From Selenomonadaceae bacterium (GTDB taxonomy: Bacteria > Bacillota > Negativicutes > Selenomonadales > Selenomonadaceae), in contig JAFZIV010000007.1 of the NCBI GenBank assembly GCA_017554235.1, forward strand, positions 1 to 64,000: a stretch of DNA of 64,000 nucleotides. Direction: 5' to 3'. The notes under the pieces were generated by a model. It did not search any database and was not told where the DNA came from. It worked only from the letters and a program-made list of their open reading frames with translations. The position numbers and the translations under genes are program-made. Positions within the stretch are counted from its first letter, which is position 1. Each line of letters opens with the position of its first letter. Shown in pieces: positions 5,460 through 55,778 of this stretch.

Positions 5460-7286
5460 TTACTTCGGAAAATATTTCTCACGCAGATAATCAAATGTCG
5501 TCACAGGCACAAGTTTTTTAAGCTTGTCTAAATCTCCCGCCTTCAACGCGGCGCGAACAGTCTTTGCGCTGATAACTTCGCCGTCAATTTCTCTGCGCGG
5601 AATTTCACAAAAATCAATATCGTAACGCGGCAAAATATTTCTCATATTTTCGTTATAAGTTTTCGTAACAGTATCTTCAGGTTCTTCACCGACGAAACGA
5701 ATATTCACACCCAACGACGGCGCAATCTCGCTTGCAAAAATTTCAACGTCTTGACTCGAATCAACTTGTACATCTTGAAGATTTTCTTTGTTAAAGTAAC
5801 CTTCAAAAGTTTTCTGCGAAATGACAAACTGTCCGCTTGGTAAAACTTCAACATTTGGAAATTTTTCTGTGCCGCGCTTGACCATTTCAAATCTGTCATC
5901 GAAAGAAAATTCGCTTTTATCCTCAGACACAACCATTATAAAAAGTTTATGAACTCTTGCCGCCGCATATTCGACAAGGTGTTCGTGTCCAAGAGTGAAC
6001 GGATTGGCATTCATAACTATGCAGCCGATTTTGAGACGTTTCTCACGAAGTTTTTGTTTATGTTCGTCCAATTCTTTGTTGTCGAAATTTCTTGCAACCT
6101 GCGCGGAATTTTCACGCGGTATACCGTAGCGGTGAGGCGGTAGGGGGGGGGTAGAATATTCAATTTTTGTGTTTTTGAAAAAATTGTTCTGAACTAAGAG
6201 TTGGAAAAATTTTTCAGCCAAAATTTTAAATCCAATTTCGTTGACGTGATTTTTAAAGGCAAAAATTTCTCTGTAGTCGTAACCGTCAAATGCTCTGCTA
6301 ATGTCGAAAAAAGGCAAAGTAGTTGTCCTTAAATTTCCAAACCAAGCAAAAAATATATCTCCTGATTGAGGTGATAAATGTTCGAGATTATAAAAAGTAT
6401 GTTGAATAAATCTTGGCCAAAAATATTGCGCTTCATTCTCTACTCTGTAGGGTAAATTATTATCATTCAGCATTTTCTGCAAATAACTCGCGATAGTTTT
6501 ATCAAAAGGCGCACCGGCTCCAAGATGATGCGACGCACCTACAAAGTAAATTCGATTTATAAATTTTTCAGGTTGATTTGCGGTACGTCGTCGACCATTT
6601 TCAATTCTGACAAGCGGGTTATCATCATCTTCAAGGTATGCTGATTTATCGGGATTAATTTTCATTTTCCAAGGTCTAAGTATTTCTCGAATTTCGCTAT
6701 TAGTATATCCAAATTTAGCAAATGGTGTTTCTATGTTGTCGATATTTTCCGAATCAAGCATTTCACGTAAATCTTTTATGTCGTAAAGTTGGTCGTTAAG
6801 TTCATTGCCGCCTTTATAATCCGACGGAGCGGGAAAGCTTGTAAGAATCAATTTTATGTCTTTATGTTGCTTAAGAAAATGGAGTAAGGGAATTTCAACA
6901 TAAGTCCGACTGATGAAATAATTTGTTAGCTGATCAAGATAAATTATTTTATCCATAGGTACATTAAGCCTTCCAATTGTCAAGAAAATAATTTTATCGA
7001 ATTGATTTAAGTTAAATTCTACCAGATTTTTTATTTCCAATTCGCCGAGAATGCCGGCAACAGAAAAATTTATTGGAGGTATACCTCTACCAATAAAAGC
7101 AAATTGTGCGTCCATCCGTAAATCGTATTTGAATTGCACATAAATTTCCCATATAAAATCTGCGCGGCGTTCATCAACGGCAACGAAGAGCGGCTTTTTT
7201 ATATTGTTGTCGATACAGAATTGCGGAAAAGTATATCCTGCCGTGAAACAATCGCGTAGCTGAACAATCAATATATCGTCGTTCAT
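5460..7286 (-). CDS. SGNH-like domain fused to a CitC-type cytidylyltransferase domain
   Basis: 608 aa in three parts. Residues 1 to about 240 are unrecognised. Residues about 245-370 resemble an SGNH/GDSL hydrolase: an oxyanion-type loop YFVGASHHLGAGAPFDKT at the start and NHVNEIGFKILAEKF near the end, the position of the catalytic Asp/His pair. Residues about 410-608 match the nucleotidyltransferase domain of citrate-lyase ligase: CIVMNANPFTLGHEHLV (the T-x-G-H-x-H nucleotide site) and VISAKTVRAAL (the ISxxxVR motif). No citrate lyase genes are nearby, so a role in CitC-type acetylation is doubtful; activation or transfer of a small group onto a surface polymer fits the adjacent acyltransferase better (inference). 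A C9 run sits in frame at the domain junction. Confidence 0.75.
   Translation of the reverse strand: MNDDILIVQLRDCFTAGYTFPQFCIDNNIKKPLFVAVDERRADFIWEIYVQFKYDLRMDAQFAFIGRGIPPINFSVAGILGELEIKNLVEFNLNQFDKIIFLTIGRLNVPMDKIIYLDQLTNYFISRTYVEIPLLHFLKQHKDIKLILTSFPAPSDYKGGNELNDQLYDIKDLREMLDSENIDNIETPFAKFGYTNSEIREILRPWKMKINPDKSAYLEDDDNPLVRIENGRRRTANQPEKFINRIYFVGASHHLGAGAPFDKTIASYLQKMLNDNNLPYRVENEAQYFWPRFIQHTFYNLEHLSPQSGDIFFAWFGNLRTTTLPFFDISRAFDGYDYREIFAFKNHVNEIGFKILAEKFFQLLVQNNFFKNTKIEYSTPPLPPHRYGIPRENSAQVARNFDNKELDEHKQKLREKRLKIGCIVMNANPFTLGHEHLVEYAAARVHKLFIMVVSEDKSEFSFDDRFEMVKRGTEKFPNVEVLPSGQFVISQKTFEGYFNKENLQDVQVDSSQDVEIFASEIAPSLGVNIRFVGEEPEDTVTKTYNENMRNILPRYDIDFCEIPRREIDGEVISAKTVRAALKAGDLDKLKKLVPVTTFDYLREKYFPK
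6143..6151. repeat. G9 homopolymer inside the SGNH/CitC-like gene
   Basis: Nine consecutive G on the plus strand, read as Pro codons (STPPLPPH) in the minus-strand gene. The tract falls between the SGNH and nucleotidyltransferase parts. A gain or loss of one base would stop translation before the second domain, so it is a candidate contingency locus. Confidence 0.8.
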
Positions 7287-50329: not shown

Positions 50330-51016
50330 ATGTTTAAAAAATCTTTTATGGCTATGATGGCACTGTTTTTAGTGCTTTTCACAGCAGGTTGCGGCGGCGG
50401 TAAAGAGACTCCTAAAGCGGCTGATGATAAGCCCGCAGTTTCCGCCGATAAATCCGTTTTGGCTTACACTGAAATGTATGCGAAAAATGACACAAGTGCT
50501 ATCGTCGCAAGCGGATTGATGACAGCTGACAGCGCAAAGTTCATCTCTGATTTGATTACTGACAACATTCGTGCGCAGTTTAAAGAATATCCGTTAGATG
50601 ACGCCAATGTCGAAAAAATAACCAAAAAATATTTTGAATACGTGAATAAAATTACAAAAATTTCTACCAAGTTGAAAAAAGACGATCCTGAACACCCCGT
50701 AGTAGAAGTTACGGCAACAACGATTAATGGTAAAGTACCTGCAGAAGAATTAGCTAAGAATGAAGGAATGGCTGAAGCTATGGCAATAGTTCAAGAAGCT
50801 GTAGCACAAGGTCTTAACAATGACCAGATGAAAGGAGATAAAAATTTCCAAGATCGTATAGTTGTAGCCATTGAAAAATTTGTTACAACAATGCCGACTA
50901 TAGAACATAGCATGGACATAACTTGCAAAATTGATAAAGGTGAAGACGGCAAAAATCACTGGGTACCGGACGAGAATGATTTGACAGTACTTGCACAATT
51001 TGCACAGGGTCAATAA
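50330..51016 (+). CDS. Lipoprotein, paralog 4 of 7
   Basis: 228 aa, lipobox LFTAGC. Shares its signal region with paralog 3. Blocks: DKSVLAYTEMYAKNDTSAI, LKKDDPEHPVVEVTA, ITCKIDKGEDGKNHWVPDE. The usual YWAP is replaced by HWVP. Ribosome site GGAGAGG. A 143-base gap follows with no ORF. Confidence 0.88.
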   Translation: MFKKSFMAMMALFLVLFTAGCGGGKETPKAADDKPAVSADKSVLAYTEMYAKNDTSAIVASGLMTADSAKFISDLITDNIRAQFKEYPLDDANVEKITKKYFEYVNKITKISTKLKKDDPEHPVVEVTATTINGKVPAEELAKNEGMAEAMAIVQEAVAQGLNNDQMKGDKNFQDRIVVAIEKFVTTMPTIEHSMDITCKIDKGEDGKNHWVPDENDLTVLAQFAQGQ

Positions 51017-51159
51017 AAGTTTAAGGGATAAGTGGTCAGTGAAAAAAATTCTTCCCTAATCCCTAAAATTATTTTTAAGTTGGTCTTAATATTTTTGATT
51101 AATCTGCGTATAAAGGAGTGAAAGAAAAAAAAACAAAAAGAAAGGTAAGGTGAACGGTT

Positions 51160-51843
51160 ATGTTCAAAGGTATTAAAAAGTTTTTCGCGGTGGTAGCATT
51201 ATCATCAACGATGTTATTTTCAGGGTTAAGTCAATGTGGTGCAGCGGAGGTAATTGCAGTGGGTAATCCAAGTTACAGTGCAGATCAATCAATTCTGGCT
51301 TATGCTGAAATGTACGCCTTCAACTCTGATAAACACTTAAAAGAGGCAGGATTAACTGTAAAAGATTTATCCGGCAATCAGATTATTTTAGATGAAGTTA
51401 AAGATTTTTCAAAGATGCCCTTTTCTGACGCCAGTCTTTCTAAAGTGAAAGCAAGTTTAGAAAATAAATTTGAACAACTGATGAACATTAAAGTAACGTT
51501 GAAAAAAGATGATCCGGAACACCCCGTAGTTACACTTACTGCAAACGTTATGGATAAAAAATCTGTTGATGAGCAGTTAGAAAAACAAGATGGTTTAGAA
51601 GCTATCATTTTGATGACGGTTGGCGCAGAGCTTGGAGAGGAAAAAACTCCTGAACAAGTAAAAGCTGATTCTGAAATTCAACAAGCTTTCTTGGAAGCAA
51701 GTAATAGTGCGATTAATGCTTTGACTGCAGGGTCAAGCAAGAGCATAGATATTACTTGCAAGAAAGTTACAGGCGCAGACGGAAAAACCTATTGGGCACC
51801 CGAAGACCCTGCCGCTGTTATGAATTTTCTTCAGGGTAAATAA
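51160..51843 (+). CDS. Exported protein, paralog 5 of 7
   Basis: 227 aa. Signal peptide is present, but the lipobox is poor (LSQC, Gln before Cys), so it may be cut after CGA-A and released rather than lipidated. Blocks: DQSILAYAEMYAFNSDKHLK, LKKDDPEHPVVTLTA, ITCKKVTGADGKTYWAPED. The second half is close in DNA to paralog 6. Confidence 0.86.
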   Translation: MFKGIKKFFAVVALSSTMLFSGLSQCGAAEVIAVGNPSYSADQSILAYAEMYAFNSDKHLKEAGLTVKDLSGNQIILDEVKDFSKMPFSDASLSKVKASLENKFEQLMNIKVTLKKDDPEHPVVTLTANVMDKKSVDEQLEKQDGLEAIILMTVGAELGEEKTPEQVKADSEIQQAFLEASNSAINALTAGSSKSIDITCKKVTGADGKTYWAPEDPAAVMNFLQGK

Positions 51844-51881
51844 TAATTTAAGACGATAACAGTAATGGCGAGGCGAAAAGT

Positions 51882-52562
51882 ATGTTGAAGAGATATTTTG
51901 TAGCGATTGTAGCAGTATTTTTGGTACTTTTCGCTACAGGCTGCGGAGGCGGCGGACAAAAAGCTGATGCCGATAATCCGCAAGCAAGTGCAGATAAAGC
52001 CGTATTGGCTTACGCTGAACTGTATGGATTCGACAAGTCAACACATTTGCAGGATGCAGGTTTAACGCAAAAGGATGCAGATTCATTTAACAATCAGATT
52101 ATCCTTGATGAAGTTAATGATTATTTCGCAAAGTTGCCTTTTTCAGATGACAGTCTTGCCAAATTGAAAGTCAGCTTTGAAAATAAGTTTGAACAGTTAC
52201 TGGACATTAAGGCAACGTTGAAAAAAGATGATCCAGAACATCCCGTTGTGACACTTACTGCAAACGTTATGGACGAAAAATCAGTTGATGAGCAGTTAGA
52301 AAAACAAGACGGTTTGAAAGCGATAATTTTGATTGTCGCCGGTGAAGAGCTTGGAGAGGAAAAAACTCCCGAACAATTAAAAGCTGATAGCGAAATTCAA
52401 CAGGCTTTCTTGGAAACAAGTAACAATGTAATTAATGCTTTGACTGCAGGAACTCCTAAGAGCATAGACATTACTTGCAAAAAGGTAAAGGGCGCGGACG
52501 GTAAAACCTACTGGGCTCCTGAAGACCCTGCCGCTGTTATGAATTTTATTCAAGGTAAATAA
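51882..52562 (+). CDS. Lipoprotein, paralog 6 of 7
   Basis: 226 aa, lipobox LFATGC followed by GGGG. From about residue 70 to the end it is near-identical to paralog 5 (DEQLEKQDGLKAIIL; KSIDITCKKVKGADGKTYW), marking a recent duplication or conversion. N-terminal thirds differ. Confidence 0.88.
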   Translation: MLKRYFVAIVAVFLVLFATGCGGGGQKADADNPQASADKAVLAYAELYGFDKSTHLQDAGLTQKDADSFNNQIILDEVNDYFAKLPFSDDSLAKLKVSFENKFEQLLDIKATLKKDDPEHPVVTLTANVMDEKSVDEQLEKQDGLKAIILIVAGEELGEEKTPEQLKADSEIQQAFLETSNNVINALTAGTPKSIDITCKKVKGADGKTYWAPEDPAAVMNFIQGK

Positions 52563-52615
52563 TTGTGTCGAACAATAAAAAACTTACTAAAGGACTTGCG
52601 AATACCTAAGGCTTT

Positions 52616-52641
52616 TCCTCCACCACTTAAAATGGTGGGGG
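52616..52641. repeat. Strong hairpin resembling an IS200/IS605 end
   Basis: Ten-bp stem TCCTCCACCA/TGGTGGGGGA (one T-G pair) with loop CTTAAAA, between paralogs 6 and 7. There is no T-run. Such isolated GC-rich hairpins occur at ends of IS200/IS605 elements and their small derivatives; no transposase is present here. Confidence 0.5.
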
Positions 52642-52687
52642 AATATTGCCGTGTTTTGAGTAAAAAATTTTTTGGAGGTTGAAAAGA

Positions 52688-53383
52688 ATGTTTAAAAAAT
52701 GTTTTGCAGCTATTATGACGTTGGCGTTGTTACTTTTTACAACAAGCGTAACCGGTGAATGCTACGGAACGCGTGGAGCGAATGAACCCCTTTATAACGC
52801 AGACAAAGCAGTTTTGGCTTATGCGGAAGCTTACGCTTACGGTTCAACAGTTTACGCAAATGAGGCTGGATTGGCACAAAGTGATATTTATGAAGTGCGT
52901 AATGTACTCGTCAGGAATTTCAAAGACAATTTCAAAGACTTTTGCTTGAGCGATGCGACTCTTAACAAAATCACTGATGTTTACTTTAACAAGCTTAGAA
53001 ATTCGATGGACATTTCAACAAAATTGAAGGTCGGCGACGCAGATCATCCCGTTATCACACTTAAAGCTAAAATTCTTGATGACGCAAGTTTTGAATATCA
53101 AGCAGTTAATGATAAAAATTTGCAGGCTCTCGTATTCGCTAATGCCGGATTAAAAGAGAAAGGTAAAACATGTGCGGATTTGAAAGTTGATCCTACATAT
53201 CAAGCGGCAGCCGTAGAAGCTATTACCAATTTCATCAATGGATTGGATTTCGGTTCAACGAAGATTATGGACGTTACTTGTGAAAAAGTTATGGGCGCAG
53301 ATGGCAAAGTTTACTGGGCACCTCAAGATCCCGCCTCTGTTTTGAGATTTATCCAAGCTGATTATCCGATGACTGGCAGATAA
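52688..53383 (+). CDS. Exported protein, paralog 7 of 7
   Basis: 231 aa from ATG 52688 (GGAGGTTGAAAAGA upstream). Signal peptide without a good lipobox (VTGEC, Glu before Cys), so possibly not lipidated. Family blocks remain: DKAVLAYAEAYAYGSTVYAN, LKVGDADHPVITLKA (KKDDP lost) and VTCEKVMGADGKVYWAPQD. Next to last feature before the terminator-like hairpin and atpD. Confidence 0.86.
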   Translation: MFKKCFAAIMTLALLLFTTSVTGECYGTRGANEPLYNADKAVLAYAEAYAYGSTVYANEAGLAQSDIYEVRNVLVRNFKDNFKDFCLSDATLNKITDVYFNKLRNSMDISTKLKVGDADHPVITLKAKILDDASFEYQAVNDKNLQALVFANAGLKEKGKTCADLKVDPTYQAAAVEAITNFINGLDFGSTKIMDVTCEKVMGADGKVYWAPQDPASVLRFIQADYPMTGR

Positions 53384-55338: not shown

Positions 55339-55372
55339 GTCCGTCAGGCAAAATGTTTGGCGGACTTTTTTA
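55339..55372 (+). terminator. Terminator of the ATP synthase operon
   Basis: GTCCG...CGGAC stem extended by CAAA/TTTG with a small bulge, then TTTTTTATTT. Confidence 0.85.
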
Positions 55373-55438: not shown

Positions 55439-55468
55439 TTGACAATAGGGGGGGGTAGTATGTATAAT
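55439..55468 (+). promoter_or_regulatory. Promoter with a G8 tract in its spacer, likely phase-variable
   Basis: Perfect TTGACA (55439-55444) and perfect TATAAT (55463-55468) are separated by 18 bases, eight of which (55448-55455) are a G homopolymer. Loss of one G would give the optimal 17-base spacer. An alternative reading is that the G-run acts as the ribosome site of a 26-codon frame starting at 55460. Confidence 0.7.
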
Positions 55469-55569
55469 AGTTATGGTGCTATCTTGAAACCAAGTCATAA
55501 TTCAAACATATGTTTAGACTACATTCATTTTTGTTTGTAGTAATTTTTTTGGAAGAAGGGTATTTTTTT

Positions 55570-55734
55570 GTGGAATTTTTACTGATTAAATTTTTTATGA
55601 ATATTATTTTGGCTATATTTGTTATATATTGTTTTATAAAATTATTTTCCTATTTAAATTATCGTAAGAATGATTACAAATCTGAAAAAGAACTTCGCGA
55701 TACATTACGAAAAAAATTTAAAAACTACAAATAA
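55570..55734 (+). CDS. Small membrane protein (54 aa)
   Basis: GTG at 55570 with AAGAAGGG 9 bases upstream is the preferred start; an ATG 20 codons earlier (55510) in the same frame has no ribosome site. One long hydrophobic helix (about 2-28, FLLIKFFMNIILAIFVIYCF), then a basic tail (RKNDYKSEKELRDTLRKKFK). No family recognised. Expressed, if at all, from the promoter with the G8 spacer about 100 bases upstream. Confidence 0.55.
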   Translation: MEFLLIKFFMNIILAIFVIYCFIKLFSYLNYRKNDYKSEKELRDTLRKKFKNYK

Positions 55735-55743
55735 TTAAAAAAA

Positions 55744-55778
55744 ACTCTCGATAGATTTTTATATTGGGAGTTTTTTTA
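55744..55778 (+). terminator. Terminator after the small membrane protein
   Basis: ACTCTC/GGGAGT (one T-G pair) with a 16-base loop, then T7. Confidence 0.65.

What the first reader, a model, noticed from the sequence alone, without database searches (positions are those of the whole stretch)
55439..55468. G8 tract inside the spacer of a near-perfect promoter: likely phase-variable switch
TTGACA and TATAAT are both perfect and are 18 bases apart, with eight consecutive G between them. Slippage by one base would set the spacer to 17 or 19. Known: homopolymer runs in promoter spacers switch expression of surface proteins in Neisseria (porA, opc). Downstream is a 54-aa membrane protein of unknown function.
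Basis: partly seen in the sequence, partly recalled or inferred. Interest (0 to 1): 0.7.

Follow-up and report, generated by a model that had tools for sequence, protein, structure and literature searches.

The report
Poly-G promoter switch in rumen Quinella
A run of eight G's sits exactly between the two control boxes of a perfect bacterial promoter, and the same arrangement recurs dozens of times across this genus of uncultured rumen bacteria (Quinella), so it is very probably one of a genus-wide set of random on/off gene switches of a kind known mainly from pathogens such as Neisseria and Treponema.

Summary
The genome belongs to Quinella (Selenomonadaceae, rumen). The arrangement recurs: TTGACA-N0-13-G7-N0-8-TATAAT occurs 48 times in 25 of 66 Quinella genomes, 0 times for the reversed pattern, 5 times with C7 in place of G7, and 5 times in the 315 other genomes of the class. 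At least 19 of 46 downstream genes encode RTX-repeat proteins; 0 of 22 do behind repeat-free perfect promoters of this genome. Related promoters within one genome differ in tract length (7-12 G, spacer 14-20); one pair is identical over 30 nt upstream and 121 nt downstream except in the tract (G10 against G12). This genome also carries 16 other runs of 8-10 G, several inside genes in frame-on or frame-off state. Unexpected: bases flanking long G runs follow a genome-specific signature (16 of 17 followed by TA here, 8% for short G runs), which ordinary slippage does not predict.

The parts
55339..55365 (+). Terminator of the ATP synthase operon (after atpC); isolates the unit from upstream transcription
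   Evidence: 12-pair hairpin followed by T6
55439..55444 (+). -35 hexamer TTGACA (6/6)
55448..55455 (+). G8 homopolymer tract in the promoter spacer (proposed slippage switch)
   Evidence: same 3' flank TA as 16 of the 17 G>=8 runs of the genome
55463..55468 (+). -10 hexamer TATAAT (6/6); spacer 18
55475..55475 (+). Predicted transcription start, about 7 nt after the -10 box (inferred, not mapped)
   Evidence: inference from promoter geometry
55570..55734 (+). Orphan ORF, 54 aa, one predicted transmembrane helix and a basic C-terminus; GTG start with a GAAGAAGGG Shine-Dalgarno-like stretch upstream
   Evidence: no relatives
55738..55777 (+). Intrinsic terminator closing the unit of about 300 nt
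   Evidence: -17 kcal/mol, z -5.3

Best explanation
The G8 tract is a slipped-strand-mispairing contingency tract inside a sigma-70-type promoter of a self-contained transcription unit of about 300 nt. Replication slippage adds or removes G's, which changes the -35/-10 spacing (7 G gives 17, 8 G gives 18, 9 G gives 19) and so sets the promoter strong, permissive or weak for the small membrane protein. It is one of a genus-wide set of poly-G promoter switches in Quinella, many of which drive RTX-type repeat proteins, and it works beside in-gene G tracts that switch genes by frameshift. Shown here: the architecture, its recurrence, its specificity for G on this strand and for this genus, the variation of tract length between near-identical promoters, and the frame-on and frame-off states of other tracts. 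Inferred: slippage at this locus, the direction of the effect (loss of one G brings the spacer to 17, the modal spacing of this genome's other perfect promoters) and a role at the cell surface.
For: Exact architecture. 48 occurrences in 25 of 66 genus genomes against 0 for the reversed pattern; 5 with C7 (G against C p 7e-10); 5 occurrences in 4 of the other 315 class genomes (p 2e-17 on genomes). With at most one mismatch per hexamer, 14 of 117 tracts sampled from seven genomes lie in promoters, against 1 reversed control. Modal spacer of perfect promoters in this genome is 17. One genome (G072) has eight promoters sharing the context upstream of TTGACAATT but with 7-12 G and spacers 14-20; two of them are identical over 30 nt upstream and 121 nt downstream and differ only in the tract region. 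RTX-like products behind 19 of 46 tract promoters against 0 of 22 repeat-free promoters (p 1e-4); Pfam HemolysinCabind in 14 of 42. In-gene tracts of this genome lie in FkbM (in frame, 9 G), DltD-like (in frame, 9 G), MCP (out of frame, 10 G), DUF1919 (out of frame, 8 G) and GNAT (out of frame, 9 G) genes. Precedent: poly-G between -35 and -10 with best transcription at a spacing of 17 in T. pallidum tp0126 and N. meningitidis porA (PMC7864442).
Against: No second genome of this species was available, so the tract at this locus has been seen at one length only. Eight G is short for rapid slippage. The downstream gene is an orphan of 54 aa without relatives, so a surface role is unproven. Transcription start and sigma factor use are not mapped, and a weaker TATATA-like -10 lies just upstream. 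A change from 18 to 17 or 19 may have only a moderate effect. Promoter tracts that abut the -10 box cluster at a spacer of 19 (16 of 24), which a simple 17-is-on rule explains only if most are off. The assembly is metagenomic, and consensus hides length heterogeneity.
Confidence: 0.75

Rival explanations
1. It is a working promoter whose G8 run is effectively fixed: the tract tunes promoter strength or shape (G-rich, A-form-like DNA in the spacer) but does not switch.
For: Promoter tracts abutting the -10 box cluster sharply at a spacer of 19 although the G count varies, as if total spacing were under purifying selection; 8 G is at the lower limit for fast slippage.
Against: This site belongs to the other class (tract not abutting the -10 box), whose spacers spread from 13 to 26; near-identical promoters in G072 differ by 1-5 G.
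Confidence: 0.13
2. The tract is a remnant of, or belongs to, a small ORF (G8 as Shine-Dalgarno for ATG 55459, or an in-frame GGGS stretch of a 42-codon frame), and the promoter boxes are coincidental.
For: Most other long G runs of this genome lie in or at the 5' end of genes; a frame of 42 codons crosses the tract.
Against: Chance expectation for a perfect promoter around a tract is about 0.001, and the same arrangement recurs 48 times in the genus. If the promoter is used, ATG 55459 lies upstream of the transcript start.
Confidence: 0.06
3. The product is a small RNA or a type I toxin-like peptide rather than a membrane effector protein; the switch acts on that.
For: Unit of about 300 nt closed by a strong terminator, hydrophobic peptide, AT-rich orphan (21% GC). 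The same genome has other terminator-bounded short units behind T-tract and (TA)n promoters.
Against: No convincing antisense promoter in the unit (best 9/12); no Rfam match above threshold; ORF longer than chance.
Confidence: 0.06

Closest known systems
Treponema pallidum tp0126 (OmpW homologue) and tprL poly-G promoters
   Same: Poly-G on the coding strand in the promoter; for tp0126 between the -35 and -10 boxes, with best transcription at a spacing of 17 (PMC7864442)
   Different: Spirochaete pathogen; length effect shown by reporter and fragment analysis; outer-membrane protein downstream. Here a Negativicutes rumen commensal, perfect consensus boxes, orphan 54-aa protein, no experiment
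Neisseria meningitidis porA promoter
   Same: Poly-G between -10 and -35; spacing controls transcription (PMC7864442)
   Different: Longer tract (for example 12 G in the phasotype table of PMC4235727), porin downstream, no homology
Neisseria gonorrhoeae fetA (poly-C spacer)
   Same: Homopolymer in the spacer alters -10/-35 facing and distance (PMC5320596)
   Different: C on the coding strand; in Quinella promoter spacers G outnumbers C 48 to 5
Haemophilus influenzae fimbrial hifA/hifB (TA)n promoter (from own knowledge; van Ham et al. is cited in PMC4235727)
   Same: Simple repeat between -35 and -10; this genome has two (TA)n-spacer promoters with spacers 15 and 17
   Different: Dinucleotide repeat, divergent fimbrial operons

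Membership tests
Promoter-spacer homopolymer phase variation (porA / tp0126 type) | Homopolymer tract lies between recognisable -35 and -10 boxes | tested here: met
Promoter-spacer homopolymer phase variation (porA / tp0126 type) | Spacing at the observed length is within one or two bases of the optimum, so that +/-1 changes matter | tested here: met
   Spacer 18; modal spacer of this genome's perfect promoters is 17
Promoter-spacer homopolymer phase variation (porA / tp0126 type) | Tract length varies between strains or cells at this locus | not testable with these tools
   One genome per species and no reads; the locus has no relative in 40 compared genomes. Length variation was seen between near-identical promoters of another species
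Promoter-spacer homopolymer phase variation (porA / tp0126 type) | Tract length changes transcription | not testable with these tools
   Needs reporter fusions or RNA data
Promoter-spacer homopolymer phase variation (porA / tp0126 type) | Controlled gene is a surface or secreted determinant | tested here: inconclusive
   Here a 54-aa predicted membrane protein of unknown role; across the genus at least 19 of 46 are RTX-repeat proteins
Translational (in-frame) G-tract phase variation | Tract lies in a coding sequence, and length changes the reading frame | tested here: not met
   No long frame on either side of this tract; met for several other tracts of the same genome
Type I toxin-antitoxin module | Small hydrophobic toxin with an overlapping or adjacent antisense RNA | tested here: inconclusive
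   Hydrophobic peptide present; no Rfam match above threshold, only a 9/12 antisense promoter candidate

The most novel reading that the evidence does not exclude
Long G tracts in Quinella are not products of passive slippage alone but are made, maintained or targeted by a sequence-directed process whose recognition motif differs between species. Runs of 8 or more G carry genome-specific flanks that short G runs in the same DNA do not: own genome TA after 94% against 8% (p 2e-16); G023 T before 20 of 20 against 26% (p 6e-10); G061 TT after 58% against 8%; G017 AT after 45% against 11%. In the own genome the promoter tract and the in-gene tracts share the signature, so it does not follow from promoter or codon function. 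A dedicated tract-binding or tract-extending factor would be a new kind of programmed contingency-locus generator.
Probability: 0.15. Interest if true: 0.9.

Novelty: new member of a known kind. Interest (0 to 1): 0.6.

Why it matters
Promoter-spacer poly-G switching is known mainly from host-restricted pathogens. Here it appears as a recurring regulatory arrangement in an abundant, uncultured rumen commensal (Quinella) that has been found enriched in some low-methane sheep (PMC9585023), and it is tied to families of RTX-repeat proteins. It predicts large cell-to-cell heterogeneity in rumen populations that can be tested at once on existing metagenome reads. The genome-specific flanks of the tracts, which ordinary slippage does not predict, open a testable question about how contingency tracts arise. 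No paper retrieved here describes phase variation in Quinella or Selenomonadaceae, but the library is incomplete.

Tried and rejected
DNA relatives of the unit in 40 related genomes: only short AT-rich or terminator matches. Homologues of the 54-aa protein in genome contigs, in the genus (nothing convincing) and in Pfam: none. Synteny: atpC is not followed by this unit or by ppaC in the relatives examined; the closest relative by atpC (92%) has a methyltransferase gene there that itself contains a 9-G tract followed by TA. Rfam: nothing above threshold. Prophage origin: flanking pattern absent from viral contigs. Poly-C as an equivalent switch: only 5 cases. G8 as Shine-Dalgarno of a 26-aa ORF: judged incompatible with use of the promoter. 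A plain chance promoter: rejected by the counts.

Full report
WHAT IS THERE. The sequence at 55439-55468 is TTGACA-ATA-GGGGGGGG-TAGTATG-TATAAT, exactly as reported, spacer 18. It is the only perfect sigma-70 pair with spacer 16-19 in the window (0.06 expected in shuffles). It follows the ATP synthase terminator (55339-55365) and leads a compact, AT-rich unit (21% GC): about 100 nt of leader, a 54-codon ORF starting GTG at 55570 behind a GAAGAAGGG stretch, and a strong terminator at 55738-55777. The peptide has one hydrophobic N-terminal segment and a basic tail; an ORF this long has about a 2.6% chance in shuffles. It has no recognisable relatives. The gene beyond is ppaC-like on the opposite strand.

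WHICH ORGANISM. Quinella is uncultured. The main genome paper on it contains none of the words homopolymer, slippage, hemolysin, calcium-binding or adhesin, and no mention of phase variation (PMC9585023).

IS THE TRACT SPECIAL? Genome-wide there are 17 runs of 8-10 G, two of them in this window, while no run of 6 or 7 G occurs in the window. Several others lie in genes, with the two halves of the gene in frame or out of frame at the present G count: FkbM methyltransferase (9 G, in frame), DltD-like (9 G, in frame), methyl-accepting chemotaxis protein (10 G, out), DUF1919 (8 G, out), GNAT (9 G, out). Two further tracts lie at the 5' ends of RTX-repeat genes, and one in a WbqC-family gene. Surface and envelope genes of this kind are the usual targets of phase variation (general knowledge).

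RECURRENCE OF THE PROMOTER FORM. While reading the region behind atpC in relatives, two independent promoters with G tracts turned up. The general pattern TTGACA-N0-13-G7-N0-8-TATAAT has 48 matches in 25 of 66 Quinella genomes and none for the reversed pattern. In the 315 other genomes of the class it has 5 matches in 4 genomes, with 1 for the reversed control. The poly-C version has 5 matches in the genus. Allowing one mismatch per hexamer in tracts sampled from seven genomes gives 14 of 117 against 1 of 117 for the reversed control, often with the last G forming GATAAT. The arrangement is therefore real, G-specific and concentrated in this genus.

EVIDENCE FOR CHANGING LENGTH. In genome G072 eight promoters share the context upstream of TTGACAATT and the 3' edge TTTATAAT, but carry 7, 7, 8, 9, 9, 9, 10 and 12 G, with spacers of 14-20. 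Two copies are identical over 30 nt upstream and 121 nt downstream and differ only in the tract region (ATTTA-G10 against ATTC-G12). This shows that tracts are the fast-changing part of otherwise conserved promoters. It does not show reversible switching in a population, and it is not this locus.

TWO GEOMETRIES. Promoters whose tract abuts the -10 box have spacers sharply at 19 (16 of 24), with G counts compensated by the rest of the spacer. Those whose tract is nearer the -35 box, including the window's, spread over 13-26 with the mode at 17. Perfect promoters of the own genome have a modal spacer of 17. Two readings of the 19 class remain open: most assembled copies are in a weak or off state two bases from the optimum, or G-rich DNA (A-form-like, shorter rise) moves the optimum upward. 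The second is inference only; reporters would decide.

WHAT IS CONTROLLED. At least 19 of 46 first genes behind tract promoters have multiple RTX-type nonapeptide-like repeats, against 0 of 22 behind repeat-free perfect promoters of the own genome (p 1e-4); Pfam gives HemolysinCabind for 14 of 42. Others include AAA ATPases (3), radical SAM proteins (2), a glycosyltransferase and lipoprotein-like proteins. HemolysinCabind names a calcium-binding repeat, not a toxin activity. The window's unit is atypical in controlling a tiny orphan membrane protein.

MECHANISM, WITH STATUS. (1) Consensus promoter: shown by sequence, start site inferred. (2) Slippage changes the G count: inferred for this locus, supported by paralogous promoters elsewhere in the genus. 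(3) Spacing sets promoter strength: established for porA and tp0126 (PMC7864442), inferred here; predicted order 7 G > 8 G > 9 G. (4) Product at the membrane: inferred from hydropathy. Overall confidence that this is a working phase-variable promoter: 0.75.

COMPARISON. It works like T. pallidum tp0126 and N. meningitidis porA. Architectural criteria for that class are met; length variation at the locus and an expression effect could not be tested. It is filed as a new member of a known kind, in a bacterial class where no retrieved paper reports it.

AN UNEXPLAINED FEATURE. The flanks of long G runs carry a genome-specific signature. In the own genome 16 of 17 runs are followed by TA, against 8% of runs of 3-5 G in the same DNA (p 2e-16); in G023 all 20 sampled are preceded by T (26% for short runs, p 6e-10) and mostly followed by NGTA; G061, G062 and G017 have others. 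By counts, G082 has TA after 48 of 50, G004 21 of 24, G003 2 of 90. In the own genome the promoter tract has the same signature as the in-gene tracts. Passive slippage acting on arbitrary G runs does not predict this. A few sampled tracts are paralogous, which reduces the effective numbers slightly but not the conclusion.

LIMITS. One genome per species, assembled from metagenomes; no reads, no RNA; the literature library is incomplete; several tract-promoter contigs end near the promoter.

Noticed in passing
Own-genome loci L337/L338 (C60:523-682), L320 (C22:2691), L326 (C41:8392): Poly-T tracts of 10-14 T run into the -10 box of perfect promoters; on C60 two tandem short units, each with its own terminator, have T12 and T14 (spacers 15 and 17).
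   Followed up: partly
Own-genome loci L325 (C38:5417) and L335 (C55:383): Two promoters with (TA)n spacers of 15 and 17 bases and near-identical downstream sequence ending in a hairpin, recalling the Haemophilus hif TA-repeat switch.
   Followed up: partly
Whole genus; own tracts, others: Genome-specific bases flanking runs of 8 or more G (TA here; T before the run in G023; TT in G061), unlike short G runs in the same DNA.
   Followed up: partly
window 6143-6151: The window's other long run (9 G on +, C9 in the coding strand of the 608-aa ORF 7286-5460) is in frame at its present length: a candidate translational contingency tract.
   Followed up: partly
L224, about 390 nt after atpC (closest relative by atpC), and L076, about 290 nt after atpC: The methyltransferase gene that follows atpC in several relatives has a G tract at different positions in two species, each with the flanks typical of its own group.
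   Followed up: partly
L177, L186, L190, L192, L209, L220, just after TATAAT: A recurrent TGACATAAT- or TGTCATAAA-like motif lies a few bases downstream of the -10 box of many tract promoters: possible operator or start-site element.
   Followed up: no
window 50330-53383: Four tandem paralogous secreted or lipoprotein-like proteins of about 230 aa just upstream of the ATP synthase beta gene.
   Followed up: no
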